From Isoetes taiwanensis (Eukaryota; Streptophyta; Lycopodiopsida; Isoetales; Isoetaceae), in the NCBI GenBank assembly GCA_021234155.1, contig JAJEKV010000003.1, positions 12,643,819 through 12,707,818 on the forward strand: a stretch of 64,000 nucleotides of DNA, read 5' to 3'. Below the pieces are notes generated by a model. That model was not told the origin of the DNA. It did not search any database and saw nothing but the letters and a program-made list of their open reading frames with translations. Each line of letters begins with the position of its first letter. Positions within the stretch are counted from its first letter, which is position 1. Shown here in pieces: positions 29,095 to 30,335 of this stretch. The position numbers and the translations under genes are program-made.

Positions 29095-30335
29095 ATGGCC
29101 CGCACAAAACAGACAGCTAGGAAGCCTCGCCGAAGCGGATCGTCTAGTGCCAGCGACCCCGGCCTCATCCAGACCATACTCCGAGAACGCCTTTTTCGCC
29201 AAGGGGAATCCTCTTCCAGCGAGGAGGCAGGATCGGATCGGAGCGACCAAACAGAGGTCATAGAGGAGGAGCGGCCAGACATTATGGAGCAAATTCTCGA
29301 GGAGATCGCAGAGGAGGAGAGGAGAAGCAGGGAGCTCCGGGAACAGATAGGGCAGCCGACAGTCGAGGAGCAACTCGAGGCTTGGGCCCGTCTGCAGGAG
29401 GAGGAGGAGGAGAGAGAGAGGCAGCGACAGCCGCGGCTTAGCCCTGCCGAAGAAGCAGACCTCGCGGCCTTCATCAGTAAGTATGAAGACAAGGAGCGCC
29501 GCCGGGAGCAGAGGACGAAGAACCGGGAAGACGATCCAACCATAGCCGGCGGGCCAAAGAAGAGGAAGGCCAAGGGCATCAAGGCGGGCGGCAGAAGAGT
29601 CGTCAAGGTTGGTAAGCGGGCGGAGGGCCCCGTCATCAACGAGCCGTCAGGTGAACAGACCCCGTCTTCGACCGACGACTCAGACGATGATTACGTCCCC
29701 AACACAGAGGGGGCGAGTTCTTCAAAACCCCCGCCCGTGGAGAAGGAGGTACCCGAGCAGGTAGTACCTGATGAGCAGCAGCCTGGACAGCCGCAGAAGC
29801 CCCCACCTTTCCCGACGTGGGATAGGGTTAAAGCCCCGCGACCACAACGGGAGGCCTACGTGATAGACCCGGTCAAGGTCTATCAGAAGAGGATTAAGGA
29901 GCACAACGCCTATATGGCGAAGTGGGAGGCATACAATGCCTATTACCAGCAGCACAGGGTACGGACAATTGAAGGCGGACACCCGACGAGGAGTCAGACC
30001 CTGAAGCCGCCACCACCAAAGCCCAAGCCTCCCAGAGCACCAGGAAAGAAGCGGAGCAAGGGCAAGCAGAAGGAGCAGAGAGCCCTCAAAGAAATCCGGC
30101 ACTTTCAAAAGAGTTACGGGCTCTTGATTCCCCCTTGGTCCGTGAAGTCATGCAGGAGTACAACACGGACATGCGAGTGACCGACGAGATGCTGCTGTGC
30201 TTACAGGAGGCAGCAGAGGCAAAAATAGTGCAGCATTTTGAAGATTCGACGGCCTGCACAGTACACGCAAAGAGGGTCACCCTCATGAGGCAGGATATGT
30301 ATCTTGCCAGGCACATCAAGGGAGAACGCCCTTGA
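29095..30335 (+). pseudogene. Retrotransposon-encoded giant histone H3-like protein
   Basis: The ATG (context AAGCATGGCC) opens a 361-codon frame. Residues 1-10 read MARTKQTARK, identical to the histone H3 tail through Lys9; Ser10 is replaced by Pro. Residues of about 15-330 are a charged linker: Ser/Glu-rich, then a Glu/Arg coiled-coil-like stretch, a basic GPKKRKAKG patch (possible nuclear signal), acidic DDSDDDY and Pro-rich parts. At about 331-348 ALKEIRHFQKSYGLLIP matches the H3 alpha-N helix. At a CCCCC run (30130-30134) the frame breaks, and the fold continues in the frame 30135-30335. There LVREVMQEYNTDMR, CLQEAAEAKIVQHFED, HAKRVTLMRQDMYLARHI and terminal GERP follow helices 1-3 of H3. 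Loop 1 length equals that of canonical H3, not CENH3. Between LLI and LVRE the spacing is shorter than in H3. The break could be a one-base indel, a small deletion, or recoding. The gene lies between PBS and gag, so it is part of the element. Confidence 0.88.

What the first reader, a model, noticed from the sequence alone, without database searches (positions are those of the whole stretch)
29095..30335. A retrotransposon that encodes its own giant histone H3
Seen directly: the first ten codons equal the H3 tail (MARTKQTARK), and the last part follows the H3 fold helix by helix (ALKEIRHFQKS, LVREVMQEY, CLQEAAEAK, HAKRVTLM, ARHIKGER). About 320 residues of charged linker separate them. The gene sits between the PBS and gag of an LTR element with a perfect target duplication, so it is element cargo. 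Tail and fold from the same host family at both ends argue for capture of a whole H3 gene followed by linker growth. An H3 variant made by a mobile element could mark or alter nucleosomes at its own DNA, or titrate H3 readers. I know of no described plant retrotransposon with such a gene, but I could not search.
Basis: partly seen in the sequence, partly recalled or inferred. Interest (0 to 1): 0.97.

Follow-up and report, generated by a model that had tools for sequence, protein, structure and literature searches.

The report
Retrotransposons that encode giant histone H3s
In the genome of what is very probably a quillwort, a lineage of jumping genes carries its own oversized version of the DNA-packaging protein histone H3; the copy in this window is broken, but sibling copies keep the histone part almost unchanged, as if the parasite needs its own chromatin building block.

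Summary
The window holds a chromovirus-type LTR retrotransposon (26785-40430). Between PBS and gag, ORF1 begins MARTKQTARK and ends in a histone H3 fold (Pfam E 1.9e-15), but in this copy the fold is out of frame with tail and linker. The window's own genome (1,658,258,908 bases; very probably Isoetes taiwanensis) shows a family. Of 22 distinct window-type copies read, the window included, 19 keep MARTKQTARK, 12 run tail-linker-fold in one frame, and all 22 keep a TATA box and a palindrome upstream. A second type joins an unrelated N-terminal domain to a near-canonical H3 C-terminus; of 20 read, 17 have a PBS upstream and 17 a gag match. Both folds are under strong purifying selection (median dN/dS 0.062 and 0.044). 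The window-type fold groups with plant CENH3 against H3 (98/92; reference histones recalled). Most likely an element-encoded H3 variant that enters nucleosomes (inferred) to target or shield the element (inferred, least certain). The listings of my ten paper searches showed no retrotransposon-encoded histone; fungal hAT transposons carrying H3 are the nearest precedent.

The parts
26785..28434 (+). 5' LTR, TGTGACG...GTCACA
   Evidence: against the 3' LTR 18 mismatches in 1650 aligned bases (9 of them in one short cluster) plus one 18-base gap
38763..40430 (+). 3' LTR
26780..26784 (+). target site duplication CAAAC (left; right copy 40431-40435)
28436..28448 (+). primer binding site TGGTATCAGAGCA (recalled as complementary to initiator tRNA-Met)
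   Evidence: a PBS at -620 to -673 of ORF1 in 21 of 22 copies
28639..28705 (+). 67-nt imperfect palindrome, copy 1 (ORF1 cassette)
28841..28907 (+). 67-nt imperfect palindrome, copy 2 (ORF1 cassette)
28981..28990 (+). CTATAAATAG, TATA box 114 nt before the ORF1 start
   Evidence: TATAAATA at -105 to -113 in 22 of 22 copies
29095..30180 (+). ORF1, tail-linker frame: MARTKQTARK, acidic and coiled-coil-like stretch (by eye), basic PKKRK motif at residue 154, proline-rich part, start of the H3 alpha-N region (ALKEIRHFQKS)
30132..30335 (+). ORF1, histone fold (alpha1 to C-terminus, PLVREV...IKGERP, stop), in another frame in this copy
30478..30544 (+). 67-nt imperfect palindrome, copy 3 (ORF2 cassette)
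30677..30743 (+). 67-nt imperfect palindrome, copy 4 (ORF2 cassette)
30923..30932 (+). CTATAAATAG, TATA box 123 nt before the ORF2 start
31046..32572 (+). ORF2, 508 aa, conserved protein of unknown fold, second accessory gene
   Evidence: (relative P0001, 47% identity over 99%)
32720..34072 (+). gag frame (capsid, zinc knuckle)
34295..37561 (+). pol frame (RT, RNase H, integrase, chromodomain); in-frame stops at 34070, 34121 and 34250 interrupt the gag-protease-pol frame
37349..37507 (+). chromodomain; by my reading of the alignment to CHD1 the second cage position is W and the third is L
38750..38762 (+). polypurine tract AAGGTGGGGAGAA

Best explanation
ORF1 is an accessory gene of a chromovirus lineage and encodes an H3-family histone with a very long N-terminal extension. 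SHOWN: the gene is in many dispersed copies, is in frame in sibling copies, follows a PBS in nearly all copies read, and its histone fold is under strong purifying selection. INFERRED: the protein is made from its own promoter cassette (palindromes plus TATA), enters the nucleus through a basic PKKRK-type signal, pairs with H4 through the fold, and is deposited in nucleosomes by host H3 or CENH3 chaperones. INFERRED AND LEAST CERTAIN: such nucleosomes carry a family-specific N-terminal region in place of the normal H3 tail, so that they tether the element's gag-integrase complex to chosen chromatin, or keep the element's own chromatin from being read and marked as normal H3 (the window type keeps ARTKQTARK, then proline instead of serine 10, and nothing recognisable of the rest of the tail; the second type keeps only a short HPSTGGKS-like remnant).
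For: Fold identity: Pfam E 1.9e-15 for the window fragment, 1.2e-43 to 3e-41 for six second-type proteins. In-frame siblings: of 22 distinct window-type copies (the window included) 14 pass my filter for linker and complete fold in one open frame of more than 250 residues, 12 of these with the tail, one of them K4E. Tail: MARTKQTARK exact in 19 of 22, one K4E, two with the start lost. Selection: median dN/dS of the fold 0.062 (14 copies, 91 of 91 pairs) and 0.044 (20 copies, 95 of 190 pairs); upstream part 0.214 and 0.185; every pair used is below 0.5. Own promoter: TATAAATA at -105 to -113 in 22 of 22, a palindrome in 22 of 22; in the window 12 ATGs lie between PBS and ORF1, none after the TATA box. 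Nuclear signal: a P followed by three or more K/R in 12 of 14. Abundance: 2605 exact copies of the palindrome's 19-mer in the genome, 0 for the reversed control. Residues recalled as H3-H3' or DNA contacts: 9 of 11 kept.
Against: No transcript, protein, localisation or chromatin data. The window copy itself is broken in ORF1 and in the gag-pol frame. Eight of the 22 window-type copies fail my filter for linker and complete fold in one frame. On the window copy alone the evidence of constraint was weak: 23 of 2000 neutral runs reached its score; 8 of 23 columns invariant in nine recalled histones are changed, P 0.30 against the other columns; contact residues P 0.05. By my reading the chromodomain lacks two of the three cage aromatics, so an H3K9me link is not supported. 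The structure models were of low confidence and the PDB search found no match. I chose the loci from the top of the lists, not at random, and only copies with an open fold could enter the dN/dS.
Confidence: 0.6

Rival explanations
1. The histone fold is a tethering module: ORF1 protein binds H4 or histone chaperones and brings integrase to chromatin (perhaps centromeric), without stable nucleosome incorporation.
For: Window-type fold groups with plant CENH3 and has CENH3-like residues; the element is a chromovirus whose chromodomain, by my reading, lacks cage residues, so another targeting part would be useful. Centromere-directed integration of a plant retrotransposon through CENH3 chromatin is the subject of a paper that I saw only as a title in a reference list (the paper was not held).
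Against: The constraint on the fold is what I would expect of a working histone; mere binding should tolerate more change (inference). No interaction data.
Confidence: 0.25
2. The protein is a decoy: the ARTKQTARK tip titrates H3K4/K9 writers and readers, and the fold is a stabilising relic.
For: The tip is exact in 19 of 22 window-type copies and in the window is the first AUG after the TATA box.
Against: The fold is more constrained than the rest of the protein (0.062 against 0.214); 18 of the 20 second-type proteins read hold no MARTK; residue 10 is proline instead of serine.
Confidence: 0.1
3. Ordinary gene capture without function: a host histone was carried along and is drifting.
For: The window copy is frameshifted; 8 of 22 window-type copies fail the open-frame filter; gene capture by plant TEs is common (PMC13317346, passages).
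Against: dN/dS 0.044 and 0.062 among copies, same promoter cassette in 22 of 22, many copies.
Confidence: 0.03
4. On origin, beside the above: the two giant types come from one capture and diverged, rather than from separate captures of an H3 and a CENH3-like histone.
For: Same position in related elements; the window type and 6 of the 20 second-type proteins end in GERP where host H3 ends in GERA; host-like QE in QEF/QEY; two second-type proteins hold MARTKG.
Against: Outside the fold the two types do not align. A tree with both held as one clade is rejected, but only marginally (AU p 0.038), with recalled references and a long branch.
Confidence: 0.4

Closest known systems
Histone H3-carrying hAT DNA transposons of fungi (Pyrenophora tritici-repentis H3L, PMC3538342; Pseudocercospora fijiensis, PMC6710886), passages read
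   Same: A mobile element carries and multiplies an H3-like gene.
   Different: DNA transposons; a captured transcript, mostly truncated and RIP-damaged in P. fijiensis; no long fused N-terminal region in the passages that I saw; here an LTR retrotransposon accessory gene under strong purifying selection.
Plant LTR retrotransposons with additional ORFs (PMC7264820, passages) and the orchid Gypsy elements with an AlkB-type demethylase (PMC9289625, abstract, section 12 and passages)
   Same: Extra ORF kept by a plant Gypsy lineage.
   Different: No histone is among the domains named in section 12 of the 121-genome screen (its supplementary figure was not seen); 'histone' occurs 0 times in PMC7264820 and twice in PMC9289625, in both places about marks or demethylation.
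Viral histones (review PMC9145170, seen in a search listing only)
   Same: Selfish element with its own histone.
   Different: DNA viruses, according to the listed abstract; not a retroelement.
Plant CENH3 (sequences recalled)
   Same: Short conserved MARTK start, long fast-changing N-terminal part, H3-type fold; LLIP, APF, RxTxExLL, FEDS and VTLM(R/K) residues. CENH3 tails beginning ARTKQ are printed for Allium, Lycoris and Chlorella (passages).
   Different: Here about 320 residues of linker, no extra loop-1 residue, H3-like GER end, encoded by a mobile element.

Membership tests
Histone H3 family (histone fold) | H3 fold recognised by a curated profile above its cut-off | tested here: met
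   57.7 bits against a cut-off of 26.4 for the window fragment; 140.9 to 148.7 bits for six second-type proteins
Histone H3 family (histone fold) | Forms nucleosomes with H4 | not testable with these tools
   9 of 11 recalled contact positions kept, P 0.05; the low-confidence model was uninformative
CENH3 | Branches with CENH3 rather than canonical H3 | tested here: inconclusive
   Window type plus five recalled angiosperm CENH3s against H3 and second type, support 98/92; with the window copy alone it lay between the two groups and none of four placements tested was rejected (p 0.07 to 0.10); host CENH3 not found
CENH3 | Longer loop 1 than H3 and tryptophan before alpha2 (features recalled) | tested here: not met
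   Loop length equals H3; valine in place of tryptophan
CENH3 | Centromere localisation | not testable with these tools
   no ChIP data
Chromovirus (Ty3/Gypsy LTR retrotransposon) | LTRs with target duplication, PBS, gag, pol with integrase-terminal chromodomain | tested here: met
Group I (H3K9me-binding) chromodomain | Three cage aromatics | tested here: not met
   by my reading of the alignment first and third positions are not aromatic, the second is W (definition from PMC3350952 passages)
hAT-borne H3 (fungi) | hAT transposase and terminal inverted repeats | tested here: not met
   LTR element with RT and integrase

The most novel reading that the evidence does not exclude
A whole lineage of plant retrotransposons has domesticated host histones, twice: one type took an H3, the other a CENH3-like histone. 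Each builds its own nucleosomes, so that the parasite writes its own chromatin identity, choosing where it inserts or escaping histone-mark-based silencing.
Probability: 0.35. Interest if true: 0.98.

Novelty: new variant of a known kind. Interest (0 to 1): 0.94.

Why it matters
Plants silence transposons through histone marks and place centromeres through a histone variant. [quoted passage not shown] It gives a testable system for whether a mobile element can set chromatin state or insertion landscape by supplying the histone, and a warning that searches for H3 and CENH3 in such a genome are swamped by element copies.

Tried and rejected
Protein database: ORF1 found no relative; for the fold region only one candidate shared words, so that collection seems to hold almost no plant histones and its silence says nothing; ORF2 found one relative. 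Viral contigs and genome contigs gave nothing for what I asked there: ORF1, pol, ORF2 and the palindrome in the first, ORF2 and the palindrome in the second. No Rfam family at gathering scores and no tRNA in the window. Structure: the fold fragment alone gave pLDDT 59.7, pTM 0.37 and no PDB match; ORF2 with one relative gave pLDDT 34.4: both uninformative. ORF1 against ORF2: no similarity.

Considered and dropped: intron at the break (no room for one, by eye); programmed frameshift (no canonical slippery site by eye, and siblings read straight through); one-off host insertion; canonical H3 as the direct source of the window type (not excluded, less likely). I had meant to report that lysine 9's ARKS motif is missing in the whole second type; the recount shows it in 2 of 20 proteins (L022, L024), 60 and 67 residues before the fold, and absent in 18, so that argument was dropped. 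Early selection tests on the single window copy were weak or negative and stand beside. One search timed out; its faster form is (only printed the rows). The first self-comparison was filtered wrongly and re-read. The TATA box near -110 is a trait of the window type: in second-type copies no TATA[AT]A lies between -160 and -60 (17 of 20 with a typical start examined).

Limits: sibling loci were taken from the top of the lists; some copies are identical in the fold (41 different of 44 rows); 95 and 93 of 190 second-type pairs entered the dN/dS medians (pairs with dS of 0.02 or less or without a finite estimate fell out); reference H3 and CENH3 sequences are from memory; palindromes were counted genome-wide without checking that each lies in such an element.

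Full report
WHAT IS IN THE WINDOW. The element spans 26785-40430. Its LTRs (26785-28434 and 38763-40430) differ by 18 mismatches in 1650 aligned bases, nine of them in one short cluster, plus one 18-base gap; the ends are TG...CA and the target duplication is CAAAC. It lies inside an older LTR pair (20567-23227 and 47482-50163, 98% identical). Gag, RT, RNase H, integrase and a chromodomain are recognised. Three in-frame stops lie in the protease stretch between gag and pol. Two extra ORFs lie between PBS and gag: ORF1 (the finding) and ORF2 (508 aa).

ORF1 IN THIS COPY. The frame 29095-30180 starts MARTKQTARK and reaches the H3 alpha-N region; the rest of the fold is in another frame, open over 29973-30335. 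The fold part alone matches Pfam Histone at 1.9e-15 and H3 chains of the PDB (best 68 bits).

PROMOTER CASSETTES. ORF1 and ORF2 are each preceded by two copies of a 67-nt imperfect palindrome (58 to 64 of 67 positions equal between copies; hairpin z-scores -5.0 to -9.3 as single-stranded DNA) and by CTATAAATAG, whose only two exact sites in the 64 kb are these. Twelve ATGs lie between PBS and ORF1 and none between its TATA box and its start; eight lie in 30336-30922 before the second TATA box and none between that box and ORF2's start. The leaders after the two TATA boxes share a stretch whose score was reached by 3 of 1000 shuffles. This fits separate mRNAs for ORF1 and ORF2 (inference).

THE FAMILY. 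The Isoetes taiwanensis assembly is given as 1658.30 Mb in 204 scaffolds and 909 unplaced contigs (PMC8566536, passages), so I take the host to be that quillwort (inference; the sequence counts differ by three). The word 'histone' occurs 0 times in that paper's main text. A Pfam Histone search of the genome had 8705 first-look candidates; the 150 that were scored are all over the cut-off, and many lie in open frames far longer than a histone. With ORF1 as query 113 of 9432 candidates were scored, giving 131 matches, and with ORF2 85 of 16386, giving 85. The palindrome's 19-mer occurs exactly 2605 times (1285 plus 1320) and its reversed control 0 times.

WINDOW-TYPE COPIES. I read 25 loci, 22 distinct places including the window. 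TATAAATA at -105 to -113: 22 of 22. At least one palindrome upstream: 22 of 22. PBS: 21 of 22. ORF2 match downstream: 20 of 22 (some loci end within it). No ATG between TATA and start: 17 of 22, one ATG in the other five. MARTKQTARK: 19 of 22; one MARTEQTARK; two without the start. Linker and complete fold in one open frame of more than 250 residues: 14 of 22, 12 of them with the tail; the eight others, the window among them, are broken, cut or altered somewhere. Siblings read ...LLIPRAPFQRLVREV... through the place where the window copy breaks.

SECOND TYPE. Twenty further loci that I chose from the Pfam list have open frames of 337 to 494 residues with a near-canonical H3 C-terminus (73 to 78 of 89 fold positions equal to host H3; window type 47 to 53 of 89) and an unrelated N-terminal domain. 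Of the 20, 17 have the PBS upstream, 17 a gag match downstream and 8 an ORF2 match at 20 to 33% identity. Profiles of the two types (9 and 7 proteins) align only over the fold (91 columns). Two of the 20 hold MARTKG near the start of the frame, and all 20 keep a short remnant of the HPSTGGKS kind before the fold, as if an H3 had been split by a long insert between the tip of the tail and the rest (inference). The ARKS motif of H3 is absent in 18 of 20 and present in 2 (L022, L024), 60 and 67 residues before the fold.

SELECTION. Pairwise NG86: second-type fold median dN 0.031, dS 0.729, ratio 0.044 (20 copies, 95 of 190 pairs); upstream part 0.185 (93 pairs). Window-type fold 0.040, 0.609, 0.062 (14 copies, 91 of 91 pairs); upstream part 0.214. 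Only copies with the fold in an open frame could enter, which biases towards intact copies but should not by itself produce such ratios (inference). On the window copy alone the tests were weak: 23 of 2000 neutral runs as good, P 0.30, P 0.05.

H3 OR CENH3. Against two recalled plant H3s and five recalled angiosperm CENH3s, the window copy's fold has 9 CENH3-only and 3 H3-only residues in 65 columns (chance of 9 or more CENH3 residues from an H3 start 0.0065; the reverse test gives 0.04 to 0.08). The alpha-N columns add 4 CENH3-only and none H3-only. The siblings' PRAPFQR further adds A65 on the CENH3 side and Q68 on the H3 side (by eye). In the tree, window type plus CENH3 stand against H3 plus second type (98/92); holding both types as one clade, or window type with host H3, is rejected at p 0.038 and 0.037. 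But loop 1 has the H3 length and the CENH3 tryptophan is missing, and with the window copy alone no tested placement was rejected. CENH3 tails that begin ARTKQ are printed for Allium, Lycoris and Chlorella (passages). I could not find the host CENH3: the 150 scored matches of that search look dominated by H3 and element-like copies, and three short ones that I read were second-type remnants.

KNOWN OR NEW. In the listings of ten paper searches I saw no retrotransposon that encodes a histone. 'Histone' occurs 0 times in the main texts of a 2026 review of gene capture by plant TEs, of a review of additional ORFs and of a review of giant transposons, and once, about chromodomains, in a survey of plant LTR elements. 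A screen of 121 angiosperm genomes names its extra domains in section 12 without a histone. Fungal hAT elements with H3 are the nearest precedent. The library lacks most subscription papers and all preprints.

MECHANISM. Shown: a conserved, selected H3-type gene in the same place of many elements. Inferred: own promoter, nuclear entry, nucleosome incorporation, and a use in targeting or in evading silencing. The fold being the most constrained part argues that it works as a histone and is not just a tail mimic.

Noticed in passing
31046-32572: ORF2 is a conserved protein without any recognised domain; a relative with 47% identity over 99% of its length comes from a 2007-base public contig, and 85 scored matches lie in the genome.
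   Followed up: partly
28639-28705, 28841-28907, 30478-30544, 30677-30743: A 67-nt imperfect palindrome in four copies, two before each accessory ORF about 200 nt apart; 2605 exact copies of its 19-mer in the genome. Possible regulatory or cruciform site; what binds it is unknown.
   Followed up: partly
32618: A third TATAAATA 102 nt before the gag frame start; 8 of 12 sibling loci with a gag match have one 101-104 nt before theirs. Its relation to the first gag ATG is unclear.
   Followed up: partly
20567-23227 and 47482-50163: Outer LTR pair, 98% identical, around this element.
   Followed up: no
26047-26206 and 45586-45745: 160-base repeat, 100% identical, on both sides of the element inside the outer LTR pair.
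   Followed up: no
5830-6261 (-): Catalase fragment, Pfam E 8.9e-55, a host gene exon or remnant.
   Followed up: no
17748-18500 (+): Reverse transcriptase fragment outside the LTR element, by eye a non-LTR type.
   Followed up: no
12205-12708 (-): DUF7869 match of unknown role.
   Followed up: no
L019, L021, L022, L023: The N-terminal domain of the second-type giant H3 (IPYPIFHFNERF and variants) gave no convincing Pfam match in six proteins and comes in at least four subfamilies by its start.
   Followed up: partly
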